From contig NW_021638326.1 of assembly GCF_900090045.1 (NCBI RefSeq), positions 124,001-188,000 of the forward strand: a stretch of 64,000 nt of DNA, read 5' to 3'. The number at the start of each line of letters is the position of its first letter. Within the stretch, counting starts at the first letter, position 1. Below are positions 1 through 64,000 of this stretch, piece by piece. The notes beneath the pieces were generated by a model. It had not been told where the DNA came from and made no database searches. It saw only the letters and a program-made list of their open reading frames with translations. The DNA comes from Plasmodium malariae. Its lineage: Eukaryota > Apicomplexa > Aconoidasida > Haemosporida > Plasmodiidae. The translations under genes were made by a program, and so were the position numbers.

Positions 1-319
1 TATTTAGTTAGTACTCTACAATAAGTAAATTATATAGTTTAAACATTTGTGAATAAATTTATATCATTTTTTTTTAATTAAATTTATTTTTTTATTTAAA
101 TAATGTTAAGATAAAAATAATATAATTTGTTTTTAAAGTCATTTTACATTGTATACGTGATAAAATCAATTATAGCTATACATAGTTTGTAATGTATTTA
201 TGAAAGAATAGCAAATATAAATTTTTACATAAATATAGAATCTTTTGGTGTTAGATGCATGTTCCATTATTATCAATTTGTTTCTTTTAGAATACATTTA
301 AATATTAAATATCTATATA

Positions 320-1193
320 ATGAATCAAAAAATTATGTTGTTCCTTTTTATAAAGATTTCTACATTTATACTTTTAACATGGATATACGATTTTTACAGT
401 GAGCTGGTATGATAATATAATTTAAAGATATTTGCATTATTTATATTTTTAATGTTTTATCTTTATTAATAATTATTTCTAGAGCGAACTATGTATCGTT
501 TAAACAACAAATATGTGTAATTTTTTATTTTAGAGTACGTTTAACAAAATTATCGATAAAAACTGTAATCTTAGTAAAAAATTAGATACAAGAAATTATC
601 GATTACTGGCAAAATATAAACTGAATAATCATTCAAATAATGTGGGTTTTAAAAAAAGATTTGAGGATAATGAAACAAATAAACAAAGAGATTTATCTAA
701 TAATGAAAAGTGGATAAAAGAAAAGAACAAACAATCAAGCAGAAATTTATTAAATAAGGCCCAATACTATATAGAAGTTATAGATTATAATAATGGAATG
801 TTTGATGGAAAACATTTTCATTTTCAAAAGAAATGGGTAAAAAAAAGGGACTTTGATACTTTTCTTGCAAAGAAGAAGAGAATTGGTGATATATCTTTAA
901 AAAAAATAAAATTTAGAAGTTATAAATTTGGATTTGCTATATTTTTTGTTTTTTTTCTACTGGGAATAGGATTACCGGTATCTAGTGCATTTGATTTTTC
1001 CGATGGTAGTGGCATAGGAACACGTATTTTATATTTTCTTCAAAGTAATCTCGGTTTAGGTAGTAATGGAAATGCTCATATATTATTATTTGCAGTAACA
1101 TTCATTATGTTAGCAGTCTTGATTATAATAGCTATTTATAAGATCTTAAGAAATAATGAAAAATATCAAAAAATTAAGTTGATGATGGAGTAA
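320..1193 (+). CDS. fam-m-like exported two-TM protein (copy A)
   Basis: Two exons: 320-406 (87 bases, phase 0; donor GTATGA at 407) and 534-1193 (acceptor ..TTTTAG at 533), giving 248 aa. Exon 1 encodes MNQKIMLFLFIKISTF.. , a recessed hydrophobic signal. Exon 2 opens with a PEXEL-like site RNYRLLAK (Arg52, Leu54; Lys, not an acidic residue, at 56). Next comes the family block YNNGMFDGKHFHF, TM1 at about 161-181, TM2 at about 211-232, and the basic tail KILRNNEKYQKIKLMME. The ORF runs open back to the acceptor, so the only good Met is in exon 1. Family knowledge: I recall this type as fam-m of P. malariae, thought to be exported to the red cell with an Rh5-like fold; which letter applies (l or m) is from memory. 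Molecular function is unknown. Its 3' half is nearly identical to copy C at 59.3-59.9 kb, while the 5' half is not. Confidence 0.87.
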
Positions 1194-4100
1194 AATGAAA
1201 AATAAGTAATTTGAACTTTCGCATAAATTAATTATTAACAGAATATATTCTATGTAATATTTATACTGTTATATACTTTGTAGTATTATTTATTATATAT
1301 ATAATTTTATAAATACACGTGTGTATAAGGTATCATTTTTGTACGAAGATTAATAAATTAAGTTTTTATATTTTTTGTAGATTTAAATGTTTTAATGATT
1401 TTCATTTTGTACTACAAATTATTGTTTCAGAATAGATAAATATCATTGCTTAATATATATATTCGTGTATTAAAAGCAGATTGATATTAACTGTGTATGT
1501 ATTGAAATAAAATTAATATATAATATAAAAATTAATATACTTTTAATTATTCTATGTTACGATTGATCTTTTAAATGAAAAATACTTATGCTCTATTTTT
1601 TACCTTGTTCAATTTTAAAATAATTAAAGGTAGACGTGATGACTAAGTTACTTCGTTGATATTATGTTGAAAATAAAAATGTTTATTTTTGTATATAATC
1701 AAACGAAGTGAATGTATTATGCTACATTATGTATATTTTACTCAAAAAAAAAATCATAACTTTTATTATATAAAATAAGTTTTATTAGAAATATATAATA
1801 TAATATATTTAAAACTTAAGTTTTTTTAACAAACTTCATTTTTTTTTTTAATGGCACAATTGGAGAATTATAAATATATAATGAAATAATATTATTTTTC
1901 ATAATGGATTATTTATAGTTGTTTGCTAATATATATATTCTAGGCTATTAAAATTACATGAAAAGTTATAGTTATTTATTATTTTATTATTGTAACTAGT
2001 TGTGACAATAATATAGTTTTGACAAATTTTCTTAAATATATCTTATACAGAAATATACATATATTCATAAATGTACTATATATTTCTATTATTTTTTTTA
2101 ATATTTAAAGAATATATTAATAAATTAAATTTACATAGATACCAATATGTAATATGTTGAAATTATATCCCTTTTCCCTATTCTGTGCCATATAATTAAT
2201 ATATTATTATATTTAGAGTAATATGTTATATTGGAAGTGATATAGTAAATGTTGGCAGAGGTTTATTAAGAATTCATGATAATTCATAATTCATATTCTA
2301 ATATTTAATGTAGAATATCTAATAATATTATTCTTATAAATACATTTTATTAATATCAAAAAAATCTTAAGGTAATATAGTTATGTTTTATAAGACTTGC
2401 CAAATAAAATGTAACAGTTATATTATTTTGATTGAAATGAAATGAAATTCGGGTTAATAATAAAGAAGAAAAATATTAATTATTCTCATTGTACACTAAT
2501 CAATTCTTAGAATATGTATAAATTAATAATTCATTTTTGTATATCAACACAATAATAATTTTCAAGAACAGAAAAATATAGTAGTAAAAGAGGAAAATAA
2601 TGAAATTAGTTTTTTATATTATAAAAAAATGTATCCTGTCCATATTCCATTCAATCTAACAAAATATTCTTATTTGAAAATATATGAAACAAAAAAGAAA
2701 AGTTATTTTTTCTTATTCGTATATTTATTCAATGAATTGTCTTCACGAATAATTTAGAAGTTAATATAATTATATAATTATTAAAATAAGTACTTTTAAA
2801 TAATTATTCTGCTATGGATATTCGATACTTCTTCTTTTATTACATTACTATTTTTAATATAAATAATATAATTATTTTCTCTTTTTATCAAATTTTTTTA
2901 TTTATAATATTAATATGTCTTTCTTCATTTTTAAAATATGTTTCTTTAAATAAAATAGATATTTTGAAAATATGCACAATATATTTTTGAATATATTTAG
3001 GTATTAATATAATGACATTTACATCAATTTATAATTGTTTTTATAGGTTTATTCTTGATAATATTCTTTTATAATTATTAGATTTTAATATATATTTAAT
3101 ATACTAGCAATAGTTTTAAGAGATTATAGGTAAATTAAAAAACGTATTGGAATTTCATTTAAAAAATATAAAAGAGAACGCTAATATATATTTTGCTTGT
3201 AATGTATGCTTTATATTAATTAAATATGTATATACTCTTTATCTTATGTGGTAGAGCATAAGAATGTTTATTGAAAAGTTTCTTTTGTACGTTATGATAC
3301 TATACTATAAAAGCACATCTGTTTTTTTAATGGTAATATAATGTGATAATATCTAAATTCAAATGATTCTATTCACTAACCATGAAATTTTGATAATGTT
3401 TATATTATTAATTAAAGATAATTATTTTCTAAATAAAATATTAATAATATATAATAATATACCTTATTTATATAATATAAGGATATAATATTAAGAAGAA
3501 TGAATATATGCATTTTGTCTATGATTTTATTACCCTCTCGTGATAATTATAATAAATAAGAAAAAAATATTTTTTTTAATTTTAATTATTAATATTATTC
3601 CTGAATTAATTACATTATAGAAACAATAAACAAAATGGGGTTGTAATATTATTTGCTTAATAGAAAGAATTAAATAGAATTTTATAATATACGTATTTTT
3701 ATGGTATATGTGAACAACCAAAAATTATTACATATCAAAATGTATCTTATACTTTCGCACTATGAGACTAATATTAATTTACATTATAAATTTAAATATA
3801 TATATACAGTTATAATTGAAAAATAATATGAAAAAGAAAAATATTCAATAAGCTTATTAACTAAGATGAAAAATTAAAAAAATTATTCTGTAATTACAAA
3901 AATCAAAAAAAAAAAAAAAAAAGATGAAACTCAAAATACATAAATTATCATTAATGCGTAAATGAAAAGTAAGTCAATATTTTTTATTAACATAACATAA
4001 TATAAATAAAATTTTAAGTTTAACTGAAAGGGAAAAAATAAAAGATATATAATATTTTTTAAAATTTCTACAAAATAATTATATGTTCTTTCATTTCCTT

Positions 4101-4615
4101 TTTGTTTTAAAAAAATGTTGAAGCATATGAATTTAGTACCTTTTAATTTACATATATATTCATATTTAAATTTTATTTTTTTGATTTCATAAATATATTT
4201 TAAAATTACTATTTTTACTTTTTTTTATTTTTCAAAATATTAATTTTTCCCTCAATATTTTTGGAAAATATTAATATTAATTTATATATAGATATATTTA
4301 TTAGCGTTTTCATACATATATTGTGTTAGGTATTAATATAACTTTGTAATAGTTATTATTACATAAATTAAAATAAGTATATATAATTTGAATATTTCTA
4401 AAATAATTACATTAAAATTTTTACATTTCACATCTAGTTTTCCCTTCTATGATACACATTAATTAATAAACTTTTATCAATTACCCGTTTAGATTTCACA
4501 AAACGTATGAAATATATTTCATAAGCATCATCCGATTATATATAAATATCGTTCTAATATGTTTTTGGTGTGCATTGTGAATTTATAGAATGTATTTTGC
4601 CACAATTTAATAGGA
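1194..4615. repeat. Intergenic spacer, copy A of a long duplicated block
   Basis: No gene seen. The spacer joins the 3' ends of fam-m A and STP1-A (tail-to-tail) and is repeated almost base for base at about 59948-63350. Between 3001-3530 and 61730-62259 there is no net length change, and long runs match exactly. The 63-codon minus ORF at 3530-3721 is conserved in the copy (62259-62450) only because the whole DNA is; I do not call it a gene. A more diverged third version lies at about 35.5-37.7 kb, next to STP1-B. Confidence 0.85.
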
Positions 4616-7215
4616 CTATTCTACACTGTTATCATTATATATGGAATTCGCCCCTGAATCATCTTCTTTTATCCATTCTTCTATTTCCTGTCTAAAACTA
4701 TTCTCCCCTGTTTGAGCACGAATTTGCCCATTTTTTCTATGTTCTAAAGCAGTGTCATTAACATCAATTACTTGTTTTGGAGCATCTGATTTTCTCTTTA
4801 AATTTGCATCTGTTTTCCAATCATTTATGGAATTATCCAAATGCGATTCCTTATTTTTTATAAAATCTTCTGTTTTGCAATCTTCTAATACCATCATAAA
4901 TACTAGTATGCACATTTTTGCAATTAATTTTTTTTTTATATAACTATATAATTCTTCATAGCATTCTTTACTCTGTAATTCTTCTGAATTTAATAGTGAA
5001 ATGTTATTTTTAGTTTCTTCATTTACATACTCATCTGACAAATTGAGAAATTCTTGTGTCATTTCCTCAAAACATTTTTGTTGCAAATATTGTTCTATAA
5101 TCTTATGCTTTTTTGATATCCATTTTTTCCATAAATCTTTTTCTTTTTCTAAAAATGAAAATTTTTGATTTTCATTTGAAAAATTCATTTTTAATTCTAC
5201 ACTATTTTTTATAGAATCTTTTTCGTCTTTCCATTCATTTTTCAAATTATTAAACCAGTCTGTTTTTTTCAATTTTTCAGAAATATTTCTATGTTCTCTT
5301 ACCCATTTATTGCATAGAATTTTTTGTTTTTCAATATTATTAATGCTTTTAGTATTTTCCATTATCAGTTCCTCATTAGTCAAATTGGGATATGTGCTAT
5401 ATTCCGCTTGTGCGAACAGTTCTATGCATATATGTAAAAATTCTTGTTTTTTGTATTCCCATTCTTCATTTTTGGATTCTCCGAGTACTTCCATATGTAC
5501 TTCTATAATGGTTTTAAATCTGTCCTTTTTTTGTTTTAACGTGTTTATATTTTTTATCATGACATGTTCATGTATTTTTAATTTTTTTATAATTTGTTCT
5601 TCATCAAATAATGTGCTTTCTGTATGATAATGTGTTAAATATTTGTTTTTTTTGTCAGAAAGAGAAGGTAGAAGTATTTTAAGAAATCTCACTTTTTTTC
5701 TTTTTATGTTTTTCTTTTTTTTAAATATCCCTATTAAAGCGTACTGCAATATAAACAAAAAAAAAAAAATAAAAAAATAGATTCACAATATTATTTATTA
5801 CAATTATTATAAGTTTATCATATTTTTAATCTTCTATATTTGTTTTGCTTTAATAAAAAGAGAAAGTACAATAATAATTACAAGACTTGTTAAGATAGTT
5901 GATTTGTGCGGAACAGTTGTATTTTCTGCCTGACCTATAATTATAATTTAAATGTATATTTAATGTAGTTAGTTCAAAAACAGAAAATTAAATAGTATTA
6001 ATACTACCTAAAATTTTAGAGGGAATAGAGTTATGTGGAAAATTTGAACTTCCAGATGATGAAGGAATAATTTGAAAATCGGCTGAGGTTTCTAAGACGC
6101 CAAGACTTGTAGGCAAAGTTATAGATACAGGAGATTTTTGAGATTCTGTAGAAACTGGACTTTTAGGAAATACTGATAGTTTTGATTGTGTATGTTGTCC
6201 AGGATCTTCATGATCATCTTTAGTTTTAATAGATGAAGATTCAGATGAAGATGTTACTGGGGATATAATTTGAGATTCCTTGGCAATTCCTTTTTCAAGG
6301 GCACTATGATCTTCATGTTGGGATCGTGATTGAGGTTCAGGTTGAGGTTCAGTTTCGAGTATATCAGGTGCGCGTTTTTGTTCTTGATCTTCGCGCATTG
6401 ACGCTCTTTCGCTTTCTTTTTTGGTCACTTCTGGTAAATTTTTATTTTCTTGAGATGGAAGTTGTCCAGATTCTTTTTGAACGGTAGATCTGCAATTAGG
6501 TAGTTTGTTAAAAGTTTCGGGATCCATTATATTACATGTTTTTCTTCGACCTTTTTGCGTTTTATCTATTTCATAACAATTTTCAAAGAGTTTTTTTTTT
6601 GTCGTGAAATAACCTTTCTTTTCTTCAATCCATTCATTATATGAGTCACATTTACTTGAATAATTACTATCAGACTTAGGGTTTCCCTGTGACTGTCTTA
6701 ATTCATCCAGATAGCTTTTTCGTTTTTCACAGAAATCATCTACTTTATATTTTAATTCTAAAATTTCTAAATCATTTTGATTCATAATCAAAGGACATCC
6801 TCCTAATTTATCTAGCTTCTTATAATGAGGACTTAACCATTCTTTTAGAGCCTTTTCCCACGTTGCTTTTTCTGGTAAATAATAATATGGTGGAGACTTG
6901 TTATTAACTAGATAATTAGCCAAATATAAGCATTTATCCTTTAATACTTTTTTATCATTCTTAGCAATTATGTCATCAATATCAACTTTTATATGATTTA
7001 CAATTTTGTTGAAGATTCCATCCTTAATATATCTAAAATAAGTTGAGCCTCGAACACCCGAATACTTAATTAAAGTGAATTTTAAAAAATCATTTAAGCA
7101 TAAATTTTCATTTTTGTTTTATTATCACTTTTTTTTATTGTAAATAAATAATTTATTAATAAATTTAAGAATAATAAAAAACAATGAATATTACCTTAGG
7201 TAAACATTTTTCCAT
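4616..7215 (-). CDS. STP1: STP1 protein (copy A), possible splice defect
   Basis: Four exons, read right to left: exon 1 7195-7215 (MEKCLPK), exon 2 about 6008-7064, exon 3 5849-5934 and exon 4 4616-5743; 763 aa if all are joined. Exon 2 has Trp/Cys positions (GGCPLI, DFCEK, KTCNI) and then a Ser/Thr/Pro/Glu-rich stretch. Exon 3 carries the single TM (ILTSLVIIIVLSLFIK). Exon 4 is the charged cytoplasmic part with Trp pairs (WFNNLKNEW, LWKKWISKKH) and CILVFMMVLE, resembling the Trp-rich domains known from SURFIN, PvSTP1 and the PfEMP1 tail. Likely role: surface or host-membrane antigen on the infected red cell (inference). Odd: the exon 3 donor reads AAA|GCAAAA, where STP1-B and -C have AAA|GTA.. 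If it is not used, translation stops at a TAG five codons into the intron and the Trp-rich domain is lost. The exon 2 acceptor (AATTAAG at 7065) is also less certain than in the other copies. Confidence 0.85.
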
Positions 7216-29110: not shown

Positions 29111-29936
29111 ATGGAAAAAAATATTAAAATAATCTTATATGTCAAAATTGCTTCGTTTATTCTTTCGGCGTGGATATGCTATTTTAACAATTATGAGGTA
29201 TTATAATATTATTTAAGGATATATATATTATTAATATTTTTATTGTTTTTTTTTTAATGTACGTATTTTTAGTGTGATACATTATTTATTATTTTGAATA
29301 ATAAATATTTACTTAATTTATTAGCTTACTTTTAACAAATATTTTGGTGAGAATTACGACGTTGGTAGAAAAATATATACAAGAAATGCTCGATCATTAG
29401 CAAAACATAAGCAAGAAATGTCCTCAAATATTTTAGGTTTAAAAGAAGATATAGCATTTAATGGAGAACACGATAATAAAAAAAACAAAAAATTGAATAG
29501 AAGATCGTTGAATAATGCGAGATACTATACTGAAATTATAGATTATAATAATGGAATGTTTGATGGAAAACATTTCCATTTTGAAAAAAAATGGATTACG
29601 AAAAAAGATTATGATAATATTGTTGAAAGAAATAGAAGAATTTGTGATATAGCTTTACAAAAAAAAAAGTTTAGAAGTTATGGATTTGGAGTTACTCTGT
29701 TTTTTCTTTTATTCGTGTTGGGAGTAGGATTGCCCATATTGGATGGATTAAAATATTTGGAAAGTGTGTTGAGTCCTATGAAAACGCTTCTCCAAAATGT
29801 GAGTGCTGAGAAATATACCTTTTTAATATCATTTGGAATACTTATAATTATATTAGCTGTTTTAATTATAATAATAATTCCTAGAATATTAAGAAATAAT
29901 GAAAAGTATAAAAAAATTAAGTTGATGACTGAGTAA
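29111..29936 (+). CDS. fam-m-like exported two-TM protein (copy B)
   Basis: Two exons: 29111-29197 (87 bases; donor GTATTA) and 29325-29936 (acceptor TTATTAG), 232 aa. Exon 1: MEKNIKIILYVKIASFILSAW, a recessed signal. The PEXEL-like site is RNARSLAKHK, with Arg52 and Leu54 in the usual place and Lys at 56. The block IDYNNGMFDGKHFHF is followed by TM1 at about 150-168 and TM2 at about 194-214, with the tail RILRNNEKYKKIKLMTE. The loop between the TMs is shorter and unlike copies A and C, and the whole gene is clearly more diverged from them than they are from each other. No intact fam-l lies directly before it; instead there is an exported-protein relic. Exported membrane protein of unknown function. 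Confidence 0.88.
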
Positions 29937-32580
29937 AATGAATAACAACATGTATTTTTATATAAGCTATAAATATGATTTATCATATGTAATATCCTTA
30001 ATGTTATATACTTAATAAACTCGTTTATAATTATATTAATTCTTTAAATTCAATTGTTTTTACGCTATCTCTTTTATAAGGAACAGTGTTAAATTGTGTT
30101 CTCTCTTTATTAGTGAGTTTTAATATTTTACATTTTGTATTATACGTTATTGTTGAAGAATAATTAAATAGTATTTCTTAATATGTATATTCGTGTGTTA
30201 AAATATATTGTTATTAACATTGTATGTATTGAATCAAAATTAATATATAATATTAAAATTAATATAATTTTATTGATTCCATATTAGAATTTGTATTTTA
30301 AACGAATTTTACCTAAGTTATATTTTTTATCTTCAATTAATAAATAACTGTTGATAGAAGTAATAAGAAAAGCCCATAGTTTATATTATGTTAAAAATAA
30401 AAATGTCCTTTTTTTTATTTAATCAGATAAAGTGAATGTATTATACTGAATTACATATATTTTACTCAAAAAAAAAAACATCATATTCTTTATATAAAAT
30501 AATTTTAATTAAAAATATGTAACGTATATTTATTAATTAAGACTTTTAAACAAACATCTTTTTTTATTTTTCATGGTATATGTGAGGAATTATAAATATA
30601 TAATAAAATAATATTTTTTATAAATAAGTTTCTGAGTTTAGAGAGTATGGATAATAATTTAATTTTTACCCCATATACTATTTTACTTTATTTTGTAATC
30701 TTATAAATATTATTAAGTGTAGAATTAAATCTTTTTAAAAATAGAAAAGTATATATTATTGATTTAAAAAATAAATATTCTTTTTATTTTTATGCATGAA
30801 TAAGAAAGAGCATAAATGAATACATTATGAATTTTAAATATACCTTTTTAAGCTGTAAAAACATTTTTTATATAGTTCTTCTATTTTTAAATATAAATGA
30901 AAGCAAATTTTTTATATCTGAAATTTTTTTATTTTTATAGATACCATATTATTAAAATATGCTGAATCTGTAAGGGAACTAATTAACCAATTTATATATA
31001 TTAATTCAGTTAAAAATATTTTAAGTCAGTATTACATAAGCAAATTTGTAAGGAGATGATACTTAATTAATTTTGTAATTTTCTTTTGCTGTATAATTTA
31101 TTATTCAGTTCTCTATGTATATATATGCATTAACTAATAAATAATTAGAGTAAAATAGAAAATGTTAATTAAAATATAACGAAACATTGTCCATATATAT
31201 ATTAGTAGTATTAACAACCTACTGAACACTTCTGTATAAATAAAATATATCATTAGTATATAGAAATATTCATTAAAAATACTATTAATTGGCTCCTTGT
31301 TATAAAAACTTTTGTATTTATCATTTTTATATGAACGCGTCAATGTTTTGGTAATGTTGAAAAATTTCAGTATTATGTATTTATTTTTTTACTGTTTTGA
31401 ATGTGATATTATGTATAATCTTACAAATGTTATATCTAAATTAATATCTAAAATCAGTATATATCGTAAAATCTAGGGAATAATATAATTATGTGCAACA
31501 ATTAAAATGAATGAATATTCTGAAATTTCTGATTAACAAAATAAAAGGGTATTTAAAATTTTTATGTAACTAAAAATAGGAGCTTCTCTTTATAACATAT
31601 CATATGTACAGTTACATATATAATTAGTTTCATGGAGGCTATAAATGTGGAATTTTCTTTGAATACTTAAGAATATAATAATTATCTTTTAATTTTTCTT
31701 ATTTTTTACTTATTATCATATTACTTGCTGCTACAATTACAGGAATATTTGCAGAATATTTGCTTTAGTATATATAGAAACAAAATATAGATATATAAAT
31801 AGCATTTGTTTCTATTATAATTGTTTTTGATAAAAAAATTATAATTATAAAGTAATTTTATATATTTTTTTTATTTATTATATGTTCATTTGTTTACTCC
31901 TCATAAATATAACACCTATAAAGGGGTGTTAAATGTTAAACGAAAAATTAAGTATACTGCTTTAGAGAAACATATTTAAGAATTATTAAATAATGGATAG
32001 AAATGTTTCCATTTAAATTCCATCAACAGTATTACTTTTCTCATTTATCATCATGTATTAATATGCTTACTAAAGTTGTATATATAATAACTGAAATATG
32101 AAGTTAACAATGATGAAATTGTTCTGTATTGAGTTAAATTTTCAATTCTACATAATTTTCAGAGGAAAATAATAGTAAAAATTTAAAATACAAATTTTTA
32201 TAAAAAAATTATATAAATTTTTAATTTTTTTAATGGTATCAAAGTTTGAAATTTTTTTTTTTATCTTATATAATAATATTATTGGTTGAGTTTGTAATAC
32301 TTTTTTTTTCATCTTATATTTATTTAATACTTATTTAATAATTATTACTTCACATTACTATGTAAGAAAATCAATATTTATTGAATAATCTTGTACTATA
32401 TATTCATATCTTAAAATTATTTGTTTTTCATTGACTAAAATCTTACCTATATGTATATTTTTCTGCTAATAATTCTTATATTAGTGGTGTATACATGTTA
32501 ATCTTTTCTATGAATAACTTTTATATTAACATTATTGTAATTTTTATGAACTTGTATTAATTTCTTTATATTTAGTTAAT
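29937..32580. other. fam-m B 3' flank and spacer, no gene
   Basis: About 600 bases after the stop resemble the fam-m A and C 3' flanks at reduced identity (for example TATGTATATTCGTGTGTTAA, and AAAGTGAATGTATTATA near 30429). The rest is A+T-rich with no coding signal. The minus ORF at 31134-31343 has no support. Confidence 0.55.
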
Positions 32581-32604
32581 CTTATTTATTAATATATTTC
32601 TAGA

Positions 32605-32828
32605 AGTATTCAACCTTCGTATCGGTGTCTATTAGATTTTTGAATGGACATAATATACACTGTAATTTTTGTAGCAAGGATCTTTGTGAGGTTGATAACT
32701 TATATTATGAAAAGTCTGTCTATAATTTATATTTACATTTTGTATATTTTGTAAGGATTCTTATGTTTCTTCTTCAAGTTCAATTATTTTTTTCCTTTTT
32801 AAGCGACTATGTAACGACGATTTTATAG
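32605..32828 (+). other. Exon-like ORF, unassigned
   Basis: An acceptor-like TATTTCTAG ending at 32604 is followed by an open frame to a stop at 32826-32828 (KYSTFVSVSIRFLNGHNIHC..). It has several Cys (NFCSKDLCEV) and a hydrophobic end. Base composition is less A+T-rich than the surroundings. I do not recognise it; it may be the remnant of an exported-protein exon. It sits just beyond the 3' end of the PIR relic, on the opposite strand. Confidence 0.25.
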
Positions 32829-32935
32829 GAGTAAACTATATGAAAAAATAATATATATATACATAAAAATATAATTATTTTGTGCAGGTAATTTTTAATG
32901 AACATGAACCTACTCATTTTGGTAGAATATTCACA

Positions 32936-33633
32936 CTACTGTGCATAATTTTTATTAACCTTATATAAAACAAATAGTATAAAAGATAATAATATGACAG
33001 TTGTTGTTAAACTAGTAGCAAACATATAACATTTTGGAAGTGCTAAAATTTTTGGTACATGTGGACATATAGATACATCTCCCATTGTTTCATCATATGC
33101 TTTTTTAAAATTGCTTAAGTCTTCGAAAAATTCGTTCATTCAATTTTCTTCACACTTCTTGTAATTTTCAATGTAAAATTTATAACAATTTTTAGGATTT
33201 TCTCAACTAATTGTGGCTTTATCCTTTTGAGATGTAAAATTCATAAAATCCTCATATAAATTGTACAGATTTGTTTCTCCAAAATATGTTTATCAATTTT
33301 TTTTATTTCTCGAATACATGTATTATCTATATTGGAGGAAAATTCTTTATATCCATTAAACCAACTATAATCCTTACTATATTAATTTTCTTTATTTATC
33401 CGGTAATTCATGTATTTACAGCATTTGTTGCTATCAGTTTTATAACTATATCTTTTTTTAATTATATATTTACCAATATTCTGACAAGCAGTAGTAAAAT
33501 TTTCATAAGTAATTATTAAATTGCCATCTTTTATATTACAATATAGACAAGGATTTATACTCCCCTGTGTTTCACTTGAGATAGTATTATCAAATTCCTC
33601 TTTATATTTAAAAAATAATTCCACGCAATTATC
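32936..33633 (-). pseudogene. PIR (Plasmodium interspersed repeat) pseudogene
   Basis: Minus-strand remnant of a pir/vir-type gene. The body starts after an acceptor-like TTTTTAG (33634) with DNCVELFFKYKEEF, then SINPCLYCN, NKCCKYMNYRI, NLYNLYEDFMNF and PKNCYKFYIENYKKC. It ends with the typical cytoplasm-proximal part CPHVPKI, one TM (MFATSLTTTVILLSFILFVLYKV) and a short tail. In-frame stops follow NKEN, KATIS and KKCEEN, and there is a frameshift near 33270, so no full product is possible. Exon 1 was not found. Family knowledge: PIR proteins are exported variant antigens encoded in subtelomeres. The Cys/Trp/Tyr spacing and C-terminal layout support the assignment. It is the only PIR trace in the window. 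Confidence 0.75.
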
Positions 33634-36600
33634 CTAAAAATAAAAAAATAATAATAATATATAAATTAAAAAAATCTATATTTTCATTAAATTTGTTTTC
33701 ACATTATTTGTTGGAAAACGAATTATTGAATACATTAACATATATAATTATAATAACAAAAACATAAATTTTATGTAATTCTATGAACTTTTGGATATCA
33801 TTGTAAATATGTATAAGTAAATTAAAAAATATAAATTAAATTCACATCAAGTTAATATTTATATAAATAAATAAATGATAGATCAAATGTTTATATGTGA
33901 TGCATTCCATATACTATACGATGAATTTAAAAAAACTTTCCATATTAATATCAACTCTTTAGTTTTTACATAAAATTGAAATAAGATAGAATACAATGTA
34001 CACATTATAACATAAACCTTTAGGCGTAAATATAATGATATCAAAAATTGAATTACTTTATATTAATTAAAAAAGTGTACAGAGAAAAATGGAATTTCCT
34101 AATATTTTCATTCAGAGGAAGGCTATAAAATTTTATTGAATTGTAGTACTGAAAAATAAGTTATTTCTAGTGAATACTTATATAAATTTAGCATTATAAT
34201 GGAACATATCTTTAGTAATATTTTTTGAATTTTTAGTATACTATAAATACTTAAATATTCCATCTTTAAAAAGTACATAATTTTTCCTTTTTTGAACGAT
34301 TATTTGTTCATAAGGTTAAAATGATACTTTTCAAATTAATTCAATTAATTTTCATTATAATTATAATAATATAATCGCCTCATACAATATTTATCTTTGA
34401 CATTCTTATTGTTATTAGAATTTATATAAATGAAATAGAAATTTAACTAAAATATAAATATACTATATGACAATATGTATTCTTTTGTTAAATTAAATAT
34501 ATATTATTTTTCAAAGAATTAGCTTTAATTATAATTTATTATTAGATAAACACTTTATATCGTATTATTATAAAACAATCTCTTAATACTCTTAATTGAA
34601 TTGCATATGGAGGATAACATTTTACTTTACTCTTGGTTATATTTGACTTAGTATATTATATATTTTTATAATGGATATATAAATATATACATAAAAATTA
34701 GTTATTATTATATAATAAATTAATTATAATTGTAAATTAAATATAAAAGGAAGAATAATTTAACTATTGTAATAAAAGTATTAATAAAATTTATTAACGT
34801 GATACTTTTGTATATGTAGCATCATAAAAATGTCGATTTAAATAAGAGTTAGAATTAATTATTATAATTTATGGAGAATACATCCTATTAGAAAACATAT
34901 ATATAATTCATGTTTTACTTTTAATATATAATAAAATAATTGTGATAGTGGTATAATATTATTTTTCAATTTGTAAATTTCATTACAATTCAACTTATCT
35001 AAATTATTTGTCATGTAAGTTCTACTATAAAAAACACCTATTGAAGATACTTAGAAAATAATAGTAAATAATTTCTCCTTTTTTATATAACTAATTGTTG
35101 CAAAAATTTTTTAGGCTTATATATTTTTAGTATAATATATAAGTCATATGTTATTAAATTTTAATTCTATTAAAGTATTTAGCATGTAATTAAATATATT
35201 TTAAAATAAAAGTTGTGAAAAAAAAAAAATTTCTTTATTATTACTATATGTGTGAAAAGAATCGTCTTTTTTTCATGAACTATTAGGAAGATAATATACT
35301 AGCATAATTATTAAAAATGTTAAATATTTTTTAAATGTTGTTTTACAATAGATGTTTTATTTTTCTTATTTTATATTTTAATGTATAACTTTAACATGTC
35401 TTTTTTTTAGTTTTTTAAAATCTGTTTTAACTAATAAAATAAACATGTCAAAATGCACAGTATATATTATCAAAAATTATAGTTGTATTGAAAGTTTTTT
35501 TTGTACTAATATATAACTAAATTTATAGGTTTATATGTAGCAATATTTTTTTATAATTATTTGTATTTAATTTATTTTTGATATACTTTCAAACGCTTTA
35601 AGAGATTAGAAGTAAAATAAAAAATTTTGTTAACTGCCATATAATACATAAAGTATATAAGAAACATACATATTTAATGTGATTGTAGTTTACATTTTAT
35701 ATTAATTAAATATGTATTAAATATATATTTTATATTATAAAGAGTAAAAATATCTATTGTAAACTATCTTATATGTGTTAATTTAATAAACATTAAGAGA
35801 ATTTTATTTTTGTTACTGGTAATATAAAATGAGAATATATAAGTTCTGTTAATTTTATTCAAGTATTTTGAAATATGTATAATGATAATACAAATAATAA
35901 CTTAATTAATTATATTCTAAAGAAATATTATTAATATATTATAATACACTTTCTTTATATATTATAAGGTAATCATATTGCAAAGATGCAAATACGTTTG
36001 AAATATAGTTATACTGCCTTCTCGTAATAATTATAATTGCATAAAAAAAATATGTTAATTATTAATATTATTACTACATTAATAATATTATTTAAAAAAA
36101 TAAACCTAGTTAAGTTATTATAATTTTTACGTAATATAAAGCGGTAAATAGAAAATATTAATACAATTAAATTTATGGCTTATAGTAACACTAAAAAATT
36201 ATTACAAATCTACATGGATTTTATATTTCCCCTCATAAATCTAATATTAGTTTATTTTATAAATATATATAAATATAATTTAAAAAGTTATATAAAAGAT
36301 ATAAATAATAAATAATTTTATAAAAGAATAGATAAAAAAGAAATGGTATTCTGTAATTACAAAAAAAAAAAGAAAAAAAGGAAAAATATGTACGTCAAAA
36401 TATATAAATTCTCTTCAAAATGTAAAACGAATATAATTGAAAGTTTTTTATTAATATAACTTAATAAAAAGAAAATTAGAAATTATATTCAAAAGAAAAA
36501 AATAAAAATATGTGATTTATTTTAAAATTCCTATAAAATAACTATATTACTTTTCATTTCTACTTATTTTTAAAAAAATCTTAAAGATTACTGATTTAGA

Positions 36601-37788
36601 ATTATTTAATATATCAACCTGTTAATATTTAATATGTATTTCTTTGATTTAGTAAAAATTATATTAAACTATAAGGTAGAAACTTAGAAAAAAAAAAAAT
36701 AATAATTATTTTTATATTTGTGCATGTTTTTTTTCAAAAAAGAATAATTTATACAAATTAATGTAAAAAACAGGACGTTCAGCATAGTTTTATTACATTC
36801 CCTTTTAAAAAGTTTTAATAATTTGATTGATCTATTAAATACATTTTATTAAAAGTTTCCAGAAAGAAAACAAAAAAACTTTAATGTTATCAGTATATAA
36901 AAATTCGTGTGAAAATTTTTATGTTACATATATATTATGAACAAAAAAGCTAAATATCTTATTATTAAATGGAATTTTAAAATATAAGTTTTTATTCTAA
37001 TAAAATATAATTAGTTTAAAAAAAAATGCTGATATATATAACAGATAAAGTGTTAAAATTTTGTAATAAGTTAACACTCTCAATCAGAGATCATCTATTA
37101 ACTCATAACCCCCTAACATATTATCATTAAGTATATAGTACATTTTTTTTATAATATCCTTTTTCATATAAGTTATATATGTATTGTCCTTATATTTTCA
37201 TATTTTAACATATTTCTTTTATTACTAACAAATTTATTATATTGATTAAAACGTGGAACAATCTAATAATGGGAATGTTTAATGAACACAATATAATTAT
37301 CTTTCTAAATGTGAAAGAAACACTACAGTTAGTAATAGAATAAAATATTGTTATATAAATTTATGTAATAATATTATATTAATTCAAAAAATAGTTTTAC
37401 GAAATTAGTGATTTTGATTTTTCATATTTTTCAGTTTCTTAATATTTTCTGAGAAGTTTACTATTTTCATATAATATTATTTTTTTTTTTTTTATTTTAT
37501 ATATGTATAAATATCGTGCTACTTGTATTGAATCAAATAATAATATATGGTTCCTTTAGATATTTTTACTGCATTAAAAAAATGTATATATATTTAGAAT
37601 ATATTTTATGTATCTGCATTCCAATCTTCATATTTCACGAGAAATTTTCTTAATTTTATATTACACTTTACATTCTTCTAATTATTTGTGCCCTCTCATA
37701 TCAAAATAATTGATGAAATATGTTTCATATGTATTATTTCATTATGAATAAATATTATAAGAATATATTATGTATATATATTATAAAT
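33634..37788. other. Spacer with a diverged STP1 3' flank
   Basis: No gene. From about 35.5 kb to 37.7 kb the DNA is recognisably related to the spacer beside STP1-A (3.0-4.6 kb) and its copy at 61.7-63.3 kb, for example CTTCTCGTAATAATTATAAT near 36010 against CCTCTCGTGATAATTATAAT at 3533, and TTCTGTAATTACAAAAA near 36350. So the STP1 3' flank travels with the gene. The part nearer the PIR relic shows nothing recognisable. Confidence 0.6.
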
Positions 37789-40416: not shown

Positions 40417-40617
40417 AATGACCCTAATTGATGCTCTAGTTCGTTCAAAATAAAAAACTTAAAGAAAATTGATCGTGTACACTTTGTATCAGTAGCGTAT
40501 TTTAAATATGAAGATGTATTAAAAGCAATTACATATTTATGAGCTACGTAGTAATTTATATTAGAAATATAAAGTAAATAAATTTATTATTATTTATTCT
40601 CTGAGAGTTCTATATTA

Positions 40618-40637
40618 TTTTACGTTAAATAAATATA
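40618..40637 (-). promoter_or_regulatory. Conserved STP1 upstream block (copy B)
   Basis: About 200 bases upstream of the STP1-B start, matching the block at 7421-7440 before STP1-A (core TACGTTAAATAAATATAA). Same distance and orientation relative to the gene in both. Function is inferred only. Confidence 0.4.
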
Positions 40638-42644
40638 AAACAACTTAATATATATCCTATACATGTTTTGAAATTAAATGAGAGTAAGGTATATTTTCGT
40701 GTATAAAATTTATATGACCTTCATTAAAGGAATCCCAATAACTTACAAAAAAAAAATTACATATAAATTAAATGTAAAATAAGTTAAAATTTATTATATA
40801 TAAGTATTATTAATCAATTTATTACTTTTTTTTTTGGCTCTTTTTTTTTTTTTAACGCAAAATAAAGTATATAAATACTATTGTGTATTAAGGTAAACAA
40901 TTCTTTTTGTTCAAGTTTTTTTGAAAGATAAATAATCTATAAACCAGATAATTATTAACACTTATTGTATGTTTGTTATTATGTTACATTTATCATTTTT
41001 CCCATATTGGGCACTACATTGTAATTATATTGTTAACGGTTTTTTATTTTTAATACCTTATATATAGAAATGGGAAATAATAATATATAAATTATACTAT
41101 ATTGTTTCTGTTTTTGAGAATGGTAAATAACATTATAATGCACTTAATCTATTTAATAATATATGAAAATAATCTACCAAAAATTTAATAAGTTATGCTA
41201 TACATTATGCTACAAAATAATTTTAAATAGTATACATTATCATACATATACATATATATGTATGTTCTGTACTTGTCTATTAGCACTTTTGAATAAAATT
41301 GATTTCATTTGCGCTAAATGTTAATTAATAAAGAATAAGTTAAAATATATTATTTATTGAATAAAATGTTGAATGCTTATGAAATATATGAAAAATTATT
41401 AGAATATACTTGTGAGAACGTTATTCGTACTACATGTCTAAAAAATCGTAAAATGAATTATAACTATGTAATGAAAAATAATAATACTAAATTTCACGTA
41501 AATGCAATAATATATTAAATTAAATAATACAACATTATTGAAGTTTCATAAATGTTTTTTTGTACTTATTCATATATATATTCTAATAAATACATCATAA
41601 AAATTTTTTTTTAATTTTATTTCTATTTTTATTTTTTTTTTCTGCATTTGCTATGAATATGAAAAAATCGTTTTAAGACTATTATTAAGTATTCATTTAT
41701 GATCTAGAATGACAAAATTAAGTATTAGCGTATAATATATTTTTAAATATTAATCAATAAATGAAATCACAGAACTTTTTAAAAATATTATTGCAATATA
41801 ATTTATTATTTGTTAATGTAAATATATTATTACTTATTTTAAAATTTCTTGTGAAACAAGCATATAAAAGATAATGAATAAGCAAGAAATTAAAATAATA
41901 TATATATTAATAAATTTTAGTAAATAATTATTTGAATTAGTGGTTGATGTAATATAATTATGTATAACCAATCTGTTATATTAAAGAATTAATGGTTTTT
42001 ATTTATTTGTAATTTTTGTATTTATTTTTACTCAATCTTTATTTTTTTTTCTATTCTTTATATTTTAATCCTTTACATTCCATCTCATTTTTTTTAAAAA
42101 TATTTTTATTTATTACATTGTACATGGGAATATATGTGACAATAATTCATCATTTTTAAAGATATTATATGTTTAAAATATCTCATTTGAATGTATAAGA
42201 TATGTGGAAAATATAGTACATAATATATATGTAATAGTGCTTGATTAGGTAGCAAAATAAAAGAAAATATAATTTTCTGAAATATGTGAAAGTATATTGG
42301 AAGAACATTATTATAATTGTTATCAAGTGTATATAAAACAATTTATTTCCTCTATTTTTTTTTTTTATTGTTTTATATATATATGAAAAATCTTACTGTT
42401 TTGATGTATCCTTTATTATTATATTTTTAATATATTATAAAATTTATTGCATAACATTACAGTTTATACATAACATATAATTTAAGTAAATGAAAAAAAT
42501 AGTAAATATTATTATGAATTATTTGATATTTCTCTATATTACGATAGTTATTTTATTAATTTACTTAAATAGTATATTTTAATGTTAAAATATATATATT
42601 AAATAAGTGGAATTTTCGTATAAAATGGACTAATGATATTCCAG

Positions 42645-59072: not shown

Positions 59073-59947
59073 ATGAAAAACAAAATTACGCTAAACATAT
59101 TTATTAGAATTGGCATGTTTGCCATTCTATCATGGATATGCAATTTTAACAATTATATGGTATAATGGCATCAAATAAGTATATTTATTATTATTTGTAT
59201 TTTTCCTGTTTTACATTTATTAAAATAATATTTTACAATTAGTATATTTATTCTTATTAAAGATATATATTTACTTTGATTTTTTAGTATATATTTAAGA
59301 AATATTTGGATGGAATGTGTAACTATGATAGGGAAACATATACAAGAAATTATAGATTACTATCAAAATATAAAGAGCATAAGGATTCAAATAATCTATG
59401 GCTAAAAGAAAAGCTTCCCAATAATGAAGTCATTGGACAAAAAATCACATCTAATAATGAAGTAGGAACTAATAGAAAAAATAATCAATCACATAAATGT
59501 TTATTAAATAAAGCACAATATTACACAGAAGTTATAGATTATAATAATGGAATGTTTGATGGAAAACATTTCCATTTTCAAAAGAAATGGATAAAAAAAA
59601 AGGATTATGATACTTTTCTTGAAAAAAAGAAGAGAATTGGTGATATATCTTTAAAAAAAATAAAATTTAGAAGTTATAAATTTGGAATTTCCATATTTCT
59701 TGTTTTTTTTCTATTGGGAATAGGATTACCGGTATCTAGTGCATTTGGGCTTTCCGATGGTAGTCAACAAGGAAATGATATTTTATCCTTTCTTAAAAGT
59801 ACGCTGGGTTTAAGTAGTGAAAGAAATGCTTATATATTATTATTTTTAGTAACGTTCATTATGTTAGCAGTCTTGATTATAATAGCTATTTATAAGATCT
59901 TAAGAAATAATGAAAAATGTCAAAAAATTAAGTTGATGATGGAGTAA
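59073..59947 (+). CDS. fam-m-like exported two-TM protein (copy C)
   Basis: Two exons: 59073-59159 (87 bases; donor GTATAA) and 59288-59947 (acceptor TTTTTTAG), 248 aa, the same length as copy A. Exon 1: MKNKITLNIFIRIGMFAILSW. The PEXEL-like site is RNYRLLSKYK (Arg52, Leu54). From LLNKAQYY on, the protein is close to copy A: YNNGMFDGKHFHF, TM1 (FGISIFLVFFLLGIGLPVSSAF), TM2 and the tail KILRNNEKCQKIKLMME. Before that point the two are clearly different, including exon 1. This is mosaic similarity with a breakpoint inside exon 2. It is the downstream member of a fam-l/fam-m pair and is tail-to-tail with the STP1 fragment at 63.4 kb. Exported membrane protein of unknown function. Confidence 0.88.
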
Positions 59948-62900
59948 AATGAACAAAAAGTAATTTGAATTTTCACATAAATTAATTATTAATAGAATGT
60001 ATTATATGTAATATATATACTGTTATATACTTTATAGTATTATATATATAATTTTATAAATACACATATGTATAAGGTATCATTTTTGTACGAAGATTAA
60101 TAAATTAAGTTTTTATCTTTTTTGTAGATTTAAATATTTTAATGATTTTCATTTTGTACTATAAATTATTGTTTAAGAATATATATCATTGCTTAATATA
60201 TATATTTGTGTATTAAAAGCAGATTGGTATTAACTGTGTATGAATTGTATCAAAATAAATATATAATATAAAAATTAATGTAATTTAAATTATTCTATAT
60301 TACAATTGATATTCTAAACGAAAAATACATATGTTCTATTTTTTACCTTGTTCAATTCTAAAATAATTAAAGGTAGACTTGATGAGTAAGTTACTTCGTT
60401 GACATTATGTTGAAAATAAAAATGTTTATCTTTGTATATAATCAAACGAAGTGAATGTATTATGCTACATTACGTATATTTTACTAAAAAAAAAAGTCAT
60501 AACTTTTATTATATAAAATAAGTTTTATTATAAATATATTATATAATATATTTATTACTTAAGACTTTTTAACAAACTTATTTTTTTTTTATTGGTAGAA
60601 GTGGGGAATTCTATATAATGAAATAATATGATTTTTTAGAATGGATTACTTATAGTTGTTTACTAATTTATATATTCTAAGCAATTAATATTAAATGAAA
60701 AGTTATAGTTATTATTTTATTATTGGGGCTACTTGTAACAATGATAGACTTTTGACAAATTTACTTAAATATATTTTATATAGAAATATACATATATTCA
60801 TAATTGTACTATGTATTTCTATTATTTTTTAAATATTTAAAGAATATATTAATAAATTAAATTTAAATAGATACCAATATATAATATGTTGAAATTAATT
60901 CTTTTTTTTCTTTTTCTATGCCATATAATTAAAATATTATTATATATGCAGCATTATATTATATTGGAAGCGATATGATAATTGTTGGCAAAGATTTATT
61001 AAGAATTAATTATAATTGTTAATTCATGTTCTTATATTTAATGTAAAATAGCTCATAAAATTATTCTTATAAATACAATTTATAAATACCAAAAAAATCT
61101 TAAGGTAATATAGTTATGTTTTATCATACTTGACAAATAAAGTGTAACAGTTATATTATTTTGATTAAAATGAAATAAAATTCGGGTTAATAATAAAACA
61201 AAAAAACATTAAAAATTATCATTATCCACGAATCAATTCTTTGAATATATATTCACTTATAATTCGTTTTCATATATCAGCACAATAATAATTTATAAGA
61301 ACAAAAAAATATAGTAGTAAAAGAAAACAAAAATAATGAAATTACTATTTCATATTATAAATAAATGTATCTTTTTCATATTCTATACAATTTAACAAAA
61401 ATTTTCTAATTTGATATTCTAAAAAAAAAAAAAGAGAAGTTATTTTTTCTTATTAGTACATTTACTCAGCGAATTGTCTTCACGAATAATTCAGAAGTTA
61501 ATATAATTATTAAAATAAGTACTTTTAAAAAATTATTCTGCTATAGATATTCGAAGCTTCTTCTATTATTACAGTACTATTATTAATATAAAAAATATAA
61601 TTATTTTCGTATTTTATCAAATTTTTTTATTTATAATATTATTATGCCTTTCTTTAATTTTAAAATATGTTTCTTTAAATAAAATAGGCATTTTGAAAAA
61701 ATACAAAATATATTTTTGAATATATTTAGGTATTAATATAATGACATTTACATCAATTTATAATTGTTTTTATAGGTTTATTCTTGATAATATTCTTTTA
61801 TAATTATTAGATTTTAATATATATTTAATATACTAGCAATAGATTTAAGATATTATAGGTAAATTAAAAAACGTATTGGAATCTCATTTAAAAAATATAA
61901 AAGAGAACGCTAATATATATTTTGCTTGTAATGTATGCTTTATATTAATTAAATATGTATATACTCTTTATCCTATGTGGTAGAGCATAAGAATGTTTAT
62001 TGAAAAGTTTCTTATATACGTTATGATAATGTACTATAAAATATCATTCGTTTTTTTAATGGTAATATAATGTGATAATATCTAAATTCAAATGATTCTA
62101 TTCATTAACCATGAAATTTTGATAATGTTTATATTATTAATTAAAGATGATTATTTTCTAAATAAAATATTATTAATATATAATAATATACCTTTTTTAT
62201 ATATTATAAGGATATAATATTAAGAAAAATGAATATATGTATTTTGACTATGATTTTATTACCCTCTCGTGAAAATTATAATAAATAAGAAGAATATATA
62301 TTTTTTTATTTTATTTATTAAAATTATTCCTGAATTAATTAGTTTATCGAAACAATAAACAAAATGGGATTGTAATATTATTTGCTTAATAGAAAGAATT
62401 AAATAAAAATTTATAATATACGTATTTTTATGGTATATGGTAACAACCAAAAATTTTTACATATCAAAATGTATCTTATACTTCCGCACTATGAGACTAA
62501 TATAGATTTATATTATAAATTTAAATACATATATATATATATATATACAGTTTTAATAGGAAAATAATATGAAAAAAAAATTATTTAATAATCTTATAAA
62601 CTAAAGTGAAAAATTAAAAGAATTATTCTGTAATTACAAAAATCAAAAAAAAAAAAAAAAGATGAAAGTCAAAATATATAAATTATCATTAAAGCGTAAA
62701 TGAAAAATAAGTCAATATTTTTTATTAACATTACATAGTATTAATGAACTTTTAGGTTTAACTGAAAGGGAAAATATAAAAGATGTATAATGTTTTTTAA
62801 AATTTCTACAAAATAATTATATTTTCTTTCATTTCCTTTTTGTTTTAAAAAAAAGTTGAAGCTTATGAATTTAGTACTTTTTAATTTACATACATATTCA

Positions 62901-63350
62901 CATTTAGCTTTTTTTTTTTTGATTTCATAAAAATATTTAAAAATTATTATTTTTGCTTTTTTTTATTTTTCAAAATATTAATTTTTCCTTCAACCTTTTT
63001 GGAAAATATTAGTATTAATTTATATATAGATAATTTATTAGAATTTTGATGCATATATTATATTAGGTATTATATAACTTTATAATAGTTATTATTACCT
63101 AAATTAAAATAAGTATATATAATATGAATATTTTTAAGATAACTGTATTAAAAATTTTACATTTCACATCTAATTTCCTTTTCTATGTTATTCATTAATT
63201 AATAAACTTTTATTAATGATCCCTTTAGATTTCGCAAAGTGTATGAAATATGTTTTATAAGCACCATCCGATTATATATAAATATCGTTCTATTATTTTT
63301 TGGATGTGAATTATGAATTTATAGAGTGTATTTTTCCAAATTTAATAAGA
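59948..63350. repeat. Intergenic spacer, copy C of the duplicated block
   Basis: Near-identical to 1194-4615 over most of its length, with small indels (for example the TA run at 62527-62547). No gene. It contains the same inverted-repeat pair as copy A (60393-60403 and 60440-60452). Confidence 0.85.
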
Positions 63351-64000
63351 TTATTCTACTATGTTCTCGATATATATGGAATTCTGCGGTGTATCTTCTA
63401 CTCTTACCCATTTTTCTATGTCCTGGCTAAGGCCTTCCTCCCCTGTGTAAGCAGGAATTTTTCTATATTCTGTATTTTCTAGAACATTGTCATTAAATTC
63501 AATTATTTCTTTTGTAACATCTGATTTTCTCCCTAAGTTTACTTCTGTTGTCAAGTCATTTATGTAACTATCCAAAAGTAATCCCTCATTTTCTATAAAA
63601 TCTTCTTTTTTGCATTCTTCCAATACCATCATGAATACTAGTATACACAATTTTTCTAGTAATTTTTTTTTTATATATTTATATAATTCTTCATAACTTA
63701 TCTTCTGCTGTATCTCTTTTGTATTTAGAAGTGAAATATTATTTTTAAATTCTTCATTTACACTCTCATCTATCATATTGAGCAATTCTTGTGTCAATTC
63801 TTCATCCCATTCCTGTTCCAAGTATCGATCTATAATCATATGATTTTTTGATATCCACTCTCTCCATAAATCCTTTTCTTTTTCTGAAAATGAAATTTTT
63901 TGAATTTCAATTGAAAAATTCATTTTTAATTCTTCAGTTTCTTTTATGGAAGCTTTTTCTTTTTTCCATTCATTTTTCAAATAATTAAACCATACTGTTT
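63351..64000 (-). CDS. STP1: STP1 protein (copy D), 3' part of exon 4 only
   Basis: Open from the right edge of the window to a stop at 63351-63353; about 216 codons of exon 4 are visible (the frame starts two bases in from the edge at ..TVWFNYLKNEW). It carries the Trp-rich features LWREWISKNH and CILVFMMVLEECK and ends NSIYIENIVE, matching the end of STP1-A (NSIYNDNSVE). Upstream exons lie beyond the window. By eye the protein is only moderately similar to STP1-A, although the DNA just after the stop is nearly identical between the two. Confidence 0.85.
   Translation of the reverse strand, partial: TVWFNYLKNEWKKEKASIKETEELKMNFSIEIQKISFSEKEKDLWREWISKNHMIIDRYLEQEWDEELTQELLNMIDESVNEEFKNNISLLNTKEIQQKISYEELYKYIKKKLLEKLCILVFMMVLEECKKEDFIENEGLLLDSYINDLTTEVNLGRKSDVTKEIIEFNDNVLENTEYRKIPAYTGEEGLSQDIEKWVRVEDTPQNSIYIENIVE

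What the first reader, a model, noticed from the sequence alone, without database searches (positions are those of the whole stretch)
750..5300. Duplicated block in which noncoding DNA is far more conserved than the STP1 protein
Spacer 1194-4615 and its copy 59948-63350 agree almost base for base over long runs (for example 3001-3530 against 61730-62259, with no net indel). The adjoining STP1-A and STP1-D exon 4 proteins differ at roughly four residues in ten by eye. This is the reverse of purifying selection on a gene. It points to strong diversification of the STP1 tail, or to gene conversion that homogenises the flank but stops at the coding region.
Basis: seen in the sequence. Interest (0 to 1): 0.75.

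Follow-up and report, generated by a model that had tools for sequence, protein, structure and literature searches.

The report
Shuffled STP1 genes on shared spacer
In a malaria parasite genome, near-copies of one chromosome-end block keep similar noncoding DNA but carry differently shuffled ends of a surface-type gene (STP1), so the contrast that was noticed mainly records DNA exchange between gene copies, not unusual selection on the protein.

Summary
Spacer 1194-4615 is 90.8% identical to its copy (3073 of 3386 aligned bases; 96.0% in 3001-3530, no indel). The exon 4 part is 80.9% identical in DNA and 61% in protein.

The selection reading is not supported. A-D exon 4 synonymous divergence (0.29, NG86) is about three times the spacer divergence (0.096), and dN/dS is 0.58. 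One of four estimators, LWL85, gives dN/dS above 1.

Nine loci share the block. In pair C25-C17 the first 4152 bases carry no substitution, yet exon 4 dS is 0.19. In pair D-C17 the order is reversed: dS 0.047, spacer 0.096. Exon 4 has two main types, and loci switch type at different places: 4520-4557 (C10), 4898-4910 (C25), a roughly 120-base tract across the stop codon in C8, and (inferred) near 4200 in A. The exon tree and the flank trees reject each other.

Best explanation: ectopic recombination and gene conversion among subtelomeric STP1/fam loci, with boundaries not fixed at the coding region. This mechanism is known for Plasmodium antigen families; the finding is a well-resolved ordinary case.

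The parts
534..1193 (+). fam-l/fam-m-like coding exon of copy A; its first part is of head type 'a'
   Evidence: Pfam PF12420 DUF3671 'Fam-L, Fam-M like protein', E 7.9e-58; ORF
694..818 (.). Switch zone of the fam head. Left of it two head types (A, C25, C17, C46 against D, C43, C7, C10; C8 is type a to about 585 and type b from 600). Type-specific sites run densely to 694, then the next is at 818, and only 12 fall in 818-1280
   Evidence: diagnostic sites; head (1-700) identities 65.6-70.9% between types, 89.9-100% within types with C8 counted as a
1194..4615 (.). Convergent intergenic spacer of copy A. About 1194-1900 resembles sequence at other loci, one of which (window 29847-30619) overlaps the end of a fam-like ORF and its 3' flank; about 2690-4615 is STP1 3' flank
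   Evidence: left part; the other loci were not checked for fam genes; right part: 30 of 38 core matches have a converging STP1 exon 4 within 4 kb; no Rfam family or tRNA
3001..3530 (.).
4190..4191 (.). Point where the nine block members lack about 0.7 kb that other STP1 loci carry. The C25-C17 substitution-free tract ends just before it (4152); A is mostly type I from the first diagnostic site after it (4251)
   Evidence: inserts of 682-726 bases in 8 of 8 loci compared; core-to-exon distance 1084-1105 in the nine and 1603-1862 in 21 others
4616..5743 (-). STP1-A exon 4 (last exon), mostly type I, open frame; CAG acceptor next to 5743 (read by eye)
   Evidence: ORF, named STP1 homologues, sequence printed
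5988..7118 (-). STP1-A upstream large exon (variable part); among 14 loci compared, C55, C45 and C32a are the close ones
   Evidence: ORF and identity profile
59288..59947 (+). fam-l/fam-m-like coding exon of copy D, head type 'b'
   Evidence: PF12420, E 2.5e-56
59948..63350 (.). Spacer of copy D
63351..64000 (-). STP1-D exon 4, type II, cut by the window end (continues in the genome, locus L031)

Best explanation
Copies A and D belong to a set of nine subtelomeric blocks in which a fam-l/fam-m-like gene and an STP1 gene face each other across a 3.4 kb spacer. The blocks have exchanged pieces by ectopic recombination and gene conversion. A and D share a fairly recent spacer, but A now carries an exon 4 mostly of type I (as in loci C55, C45 and C32a) and D one of type II (as in C17, C43 and C7). 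The two exon types had diverged before the spacers did, so the protein looks less conserved than the noncoding DNA. Shown here: the mosaic structure, switch points in C10, C25 and C8, and the decoupled divergence. Inferred: the exact place where A was joined, that strand exchange between chromosome ends in asexual or meiotic stages made the mosaics, and that host immunity may help keep exon types diverse.
For: Nine loci on eight contigs share the block: 9 of 42 matches to 3001-3530 are at 90% or more, A included, and 9 of 9 align with A from its first bases to about 5990, C7 in two pieces. A-D: spacer K 0.096 (95% 0.082-0.113), exon dS 0.293 (0.204-0.403), dN/dS 0.58 (0.40-0.85). C25-C17: no substitution in A-coordinates 1-4152, only three 1-base indels, then exon dS 0.19. 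D-C17: spacer K 0.096 but dS 0.047; dS is below K in 9 of 36 pairs, above in 27. Spacer and exon identities do not rise together across the 36 pairs (Spearman -0.34; pairs not independent). AU tests reject the exon tree on all three flank regions and all three flank trees on the exon, with nine loci and with C17 dropped. Sawyer sum-of-squares statistic: 0 of 2000 permutations reach it in 800-4190 and in 4616-5500, with and without C17 (C7 dropped from the spacer test). Type switches to 5400: C10 0/20 then 110/117 type I; C25 1/73 then 56/62; C8 17/36 then 0/99; each 0 of 2000 permutations. Control: in recent duplicate C60C-C53 spacer and exon 4 are alike at 97-99%.
Against: The max-chi2 test shows no significant switch inside 4191-5400 for A (176 of 2000) or C46 (188 of 2000); A's switch is inferred from the change of nearest relatives near 4150-4251. 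The fam head and the near spacer do not reject each other's tree (AU p 0.157 and 0.235), and the fam tree is not rejected on the far spacer by the SH test (p 0.09) though it is by AU. Recurrent mutation in AT-rich DNA can mimic some recombination. LWL85 makes A-D dS 0.115, close to the spacer, with dN 0.144. Fourfold sites are few (8 of 39 differ). In recent duplicate C25b-C5 exon 4 is slightly less alike (98.8-99.2%) than the spacer (99.6-100%). Within type I, A-C10 has dS 0.129 above spacer K 0.095. One genome was examined, and some loci lie on small contigs (C17 is 23 kb).
Confidence: 0.91

Rival explanations
1. Diversifying (positive) selection on the STP1 cytoplasmic tail since a single duplication that also made the two spacers.
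For: Raw exon changes are mostly nonsynonymous (98.7 against 24.3 in the last 216 codons); LWL85 gives dN/dS 1.25 for A-D; NG86 dN/dS is 1.3 for C7-C8 and 1.12 for C60C-C53; a 2026 population study lists STP1 among genes with selection signals (passage of PMC13387610).
Against: dS is about 3 times the spacer divergence; NG86 dN/dS is above 1 in 1 of 36 block pairs (C7-C8, 6.5 synonymous changes) and 1 of 11 further pairs (C60C-C53, 3 synonymous changes); YN00 and ML give dN<dS in 7 of 7 pairs tried; it does not explain C25-C17 (identical spacer, exon dS 0.19) or D-C17 (exon younger than spacer).
Confidence: 0.05
2. The spacer is under functional constraint (hidden small gene, noncoding RNA or regulatory element), which keeps it alike while the exon drifts.
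For: The STP1 3' flank is recognisable at 67-79% in other loci. In distant pairs such as A-C60C its identity (about 70%) is similar to that of exon 4. Seven copies examined hold 7-12 ORFs of 45 aa or more against a mean of 5.4 in shuffles of A. A 64-aa minus-strand ORF at 3533-3724 is open in 7 of 9 copies with pN/pS 0.63.
Against: The longest ORF in A (97 aa) is within the range of 100 shuffles (longest 102); the six ORFs tested are each broken in at least one copy, and pN/pS is 0.63-1.23 in the five where it could be computed. No Rfam hit or tRNA. Invariant columns number 68-90 per 100 through the spacer with no sharp peak. Exon dS is below spacer divergence in 9 of 10 pairs of D, C17, C43, C7 and C8.
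Confidence: 0.05
3. Gene conversion homogenises the flank and is blocked at the coding boundary.
For: The C25-C17 tract ends at 4152, before the stop codon; identity falls from about 4400 onward in several pairs. Minimum recombination events per 100 informative sites are highest just outside the exon (36.0 in 4191-4618; 9 events, 25 sites) and low in it (9.2).
Against: C25 switches inside the exon (4898-4910); the C8 tract crosses the stop codon; exon 4 is itself nearly identical in other pairs (D-C7 rounds to 100% over 5001-5500). Per kb, minimum events are 15.9-21.0 in the spacer parts and 13.6 in the exon.
Confidence: 0.04
4. Assembly artefact: collapsed or mis-joined repeats make false mosaics.
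For: Long near-identical repeats are hard to assemble; C17 is a 23 kb contig and shares with C25 a 4.1 kb tract that has three 1-base indels and no substitution.
Against: Three loci show different supported switch points; in 35 of 36 pairs the spacers differ by 6% or more, too much for collapse; exon 4 stays open across the switches in A, C10, C25 and C8.
Confidence: 0.04

Closest known systems
Ectopic recombination and gene conversion of subtelomeric var genes in P. falciparum (PMC3567157, passages read)
   Same: Chromosome-end antigen-type genes exchange stretches between different chromosomes, leaving chimeric genes; longer tracts and, from an earlier study cited there, stretches of about 100 bp are described.
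   Different: Here the genes are STP1 and fam-l/fam-m-like, the events are read from differences within one genome rather than seen in culture, and they involve a shared spacer between convergent genes.
STP1/SURFIN superfamily (PMC5880244 passages; PMC5326575 passages)
   Same: The exon 4 protein is related to proteins deposited as STP1 of Plasmodium malariae; 166 STP1 genes are listed for that species.
   Different: The passages I read do not describe modular exchange of the last exon; I read passages only, no supplements.
fam-l/fam-m families of P. malariae (PMC5326575 passages)
   Same: The gene at the other end of the spacer matches Pfam 'Fam-L, Fam-M like protein'.
   Different: The published doublets are fam-l with fam-m; here one such gene faces an STP1 gene across a shared spacer in nine loci.

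Membership tests
STP1 (last exon) | Sequence similarity to named STP1 proteins | tested here: met
   58 proteins at E<=1e-3; 44 of 58 are named STP1 protein of Plasmodium malariae, the rest P. brasilianum, P. ovale, SURFIN 8.2 or unnamed
STP1 (last exon) | Multi-exon gene with a short membrane-spanning exon before the last exon (feature recalled) | tested here: inconclusive
   Splice-like sites and a short hydrophobic stretch can be read by eye between the large exons; no transcript was available
fam-l/fam-m | DUF3671 domain above the Pfam cut-off | tested here: met
   196 and 191 bits against a cut-off of 34 for copies A and D
Ectopic recombination / gene conversion mosaic | Neighbouring segments with significantly different genealogies | tested here: met
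   AU tests; fam head and near spacer are compatible with each other
Ectopic recombination / gene conversion mosaic | Clustered shared sites (tracts) beyond site-order permutation | tested here: met
   Sawyer sum of squares 0/2000 in spacer and exon; switch tests 0/2000 in C10, C25 and C8, not significant in A and C46
Ectopic recombination / gene conversion mosaic | Direct observation of the event in a parasite line | not testable with these tools
   One genome only
Positive diversifying selection | dN/dS above 1 between the copies | tested here: not met
   A-D 0.58 by NG86, interval 0.40-0.85; YN00 and ML also below 1, LWL85 1.25; site models not run

The most novel reading that the evidence does not exclude
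The fam/STP1 convergent spacer acts as a standing homology arm: because it is shared among nine blocks, it lets fam heads on one side and STP1 tails on the other be swapped as cassettes between chromosome ends, much as conserved flanks are said to serve variant antigen genes of other parasites (recalled). Minimum recombination events per kb are even along the block, which speaks for a passive arm; per informative site they are densest just downstream of the stop codon, 4191-4618, but on 9 events only.
Probability: 0.2. Interest if true: 0.5.

Novelty: new member of a known kind. Interest (0 to 1): 0.3.

Why it matters
STP1 is one of the large, little-studied gene families of Plasmodium malariae. 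The block gives a base-level example of how its last exon is reshuffled between chromosome ends. It warns that comparing flank and exon identity in subtelomeric duplicates says little about selection unless synonymous divergence and mosaicism are checked first. Nine comparable loci would make rates and tract lengths measurable once more isolates are sequenced with long reads.

Tried and rejected
Hidden gene in the spacer: only short ORFs; six tested ORFs are each broken in at least one of nine copies. A 64-aa minus-strand ORF (3533-3724) is open in 7 of 9 and stays undecided. Known RNA families or tRNAs: none. Positive selection: see rivals. Barrier at the stop codon: contradicted by the switch positions. 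Recombination hot spot beside the exon: undecided; events per kb are even, events per informative site are highest in 4191-4618, and this statistic is inflated by recurrent mutation. How far the C25-C17 identity extends to the left could not be seen; the letters were not available.

Rows dropped before counts: dN/dS used 16 of the 21 loci aligned; C45, C32a, C13 and C8b were left out for in-frame stops or truncated matches, and C34 was not included. C7, which has a deletion in the spacer, was left out of the spacer Sawyer tests and of all event counts. Type II references were D, C17, C43 and C7; type I references were C55, C45 and C32a, the last two with interrupted exon 4. Diagnostic sites where a locus had neither state were not scored. 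C17 was left out of the ORF pN/pS. One search stopped with an error, so D-C17 has no bootstrap interval; its AU part was rerun.

Full report
What was checked. The window is G000:C60:124001-188000 of a 33.6 Mb genome in 62 contigs. Of 58 homologues of the exon 4 protein, 44 are named STP1 protein of Plasmodium malariae; one (P0023) is on a contig of 256,666 bases, the length of C60. A review passage gives 33.6 Mbp for P. malariae (PMC9066925). That the genome is P. malariae is inferred, not stated by a record.

Aligning 1-5265 with 58758-64000 gives 90.8% identity in the spacer, 96.0% in 3001-3530 without a gap, 80.9% in the exon part, and 67% before 534. The exon 4 proteins are 61% identical over 215 residues. 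The high-identity block begins inside the coding exon of the fam-l/fam-m-like gene, not at a gene boundary.

The block is one of nine. Searching the genome with 3001-3530 gives 42 matches; nine, A included, are at 90% or more: A, D, C25, C17, C43, C8, C7, C10 and C46. All nine align with A from its first bases to about 5990, C7 in two pieces. The left part of the spacer (about 1194-1900) matches other loci at 69-79%. One of these is in the window (29847-30619), overlapping the end of fam-like ORF 29325-29936; the others were not checked for fam genes. The right part is STP1 3' flank: of 38 longer core matches, 30 have a listed, converging STP1 exon 4 within 4 kb. The distance from core to exon is 1084-1105 bases in the nine block members and 1603-1862 in the other 21. 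The difference is a stretch of 682-726 bases, present in 8 of 8 other loci compared and missing from the nine at 4190/4191.

Selection or history. For A-D, exon 4 has dS 0.293 and dN 0.169, while the spacer divergence is 0.096. Bootstrap intervals do not overlap: dS 0.204-0.403, spacer 0.082-0.113. At fourfold sites 8 of 39 differ, against 267 of 2964 spacer sites (Fisher p 0.022; A/T sites only, 6 of 30 against 167 of 2466, p 0.015). YN00 and ML also give dN<dS; LWL85 does not (0.144 against 0.115). Over 36 pairs of the nine loci, dS exceeds spacer divergence in 27 and falls below it in 9, all nine among D, C17, C43, C7 and C8. The type I pair A-C10 has dS 0.129 above spacer 0.095. Two pairs settle it. 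C25-C17 has no substitution in A-coordinates 1-4152 and exon dS 0.19. D-C17 has spacer 0.096 and exon dS 0.047. No single rate or selection regime on a shared history gives both.

Mosaic structure. Within 4191-6050 there are 246 sites that separate type I (C55, C45, C32a) from type II (D, C17, C43, C7). A is type I at 116 of 133 scorable sites up to 5400, starting at the first, 4251. To the left, its spacer is closest to those of C25 and C17 (K 0.062 and 0.063), and C55 and C45 are only 64-80% alike there between 2601 and 4200. C10 changes from II to I at 4520-4557, and C25 at 4898-4910. C8 has a type I tract from 4557 to 4678, across the stop codon at 4616-4618; it is type II at 99 of 99 scorable sites to the right and mostly type II to the left. 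Permutation tests support the switches in C10, C25 and C8 (0 of 2000 each) but not one within 4191-5400 in A or C46. On the other side, fam heads come in two types whose dense differences end at 694; 12 type-specific sites remain between 818 and 1280, and C8 changes head type near 590. Trees of the exon and of the far spacer are each rejected by AU tests on the other regions; the fam head and the near spacer are compatible. Sawyer tests find clustered sharing in both spacer and exon. Minimum recombination events per kb are even along the block (13.6-22.9), but per 100 informative sites they range from 8.5 in the fam head and 9.2 in the exon to 36.0 in 4191-4618. I claim no hot spot, and cannot exclude one.

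Controls. C60C (window about 32-42 kb) and C53 are a recent duplicate pair with spacer and exon 4 alike at 97-99%. C55-C45 has spacer 92-97% and exon 4 97-99%. A conserved spacer with strongly diverged exon 4 is thus not the rule in these three pairs.

Is the spacer functional? There is no known RNA. ORFs of 45 aa or more number 7-12 per copy in seven copies, against a mean of 5.4 in shuffles of A. Six were tested in nine copies and each is broken in at least one; the best, 3533-3724 on the minus strand, is open in 7 of 9 with pN/pS 0.63. Transcription was not tested. Distant STP1 loci keep about 70% identity in the 3' flank, similar to their exon 4; ordinary paralogy or weak constraint would both do.

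Literature. Ectopic recombination producing chimeric subtelomeric antigen genes is established in P. falciparum (PMC3567157, passages). For P. malariae I searched STP1 with subtelomeric (11 papers), STP1 with Plasmodium, recombination and SURFIN (5), fam-l/fam-m with recombination (2) and STP1 with gene conversion (0). In the passages read I saw no description of this exchange. Only the open library was searched and most listed papers were not opened, so this does not show that it is unpublished.

Verdict. A true observation with a known kind of cause: mosaic subtelomeric genes. It is useful as a worked, base-level case and as a caution.

Noticed in passing
window 32000-42000: The second minus-strand STP1 locus (exon 4 ORF 37789-38931) has a near-copy on contig C53, 97-99% alike over about 6.5 kb, with a dip to 90% in the upstream variable part of STP1.
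   Followed up: partly
L045 and L046 (C25 and C5): A recent duplicate pair is 99.6-100% identical through the spacer, about 99% in exon 4, but 81-97% in the upstream part of STP1: divergence grows towards the variable end.
   Followed up: partly
L041, L042, L039, L050 (C45, C32, C13, C8): STP1 copies whose exon 4 match contains several in-frame stops, so some family members are probably pseudogenes.
   Followed up: no
window 4190/4191; L040, L041, L043, L044: About 0.7 kb of STP1 3' flank is absent from the nine block members but present in the other STP1 loci compared, a marker for this subgroup.
   Followed up: partly
window 3533-3724, minus strand: A 64-aa open frame in the spacer is open in 7 of 9 block copies with pN/pS 0.63; too little to call it a gene.
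   Followed up: partly
L036 (C7), A-coordinates about 2145-2518: C7 has a deletion of roughly 400 bases in the middle of the spacer.
   Followed up: no
window 47811-50202: A third, plus-strand STP1 gene (two large ORFs) lies opposite the minus-strand one at 37789-40271; its exon 4 protein is about 50% identical to copy A's.
   Followed up: no
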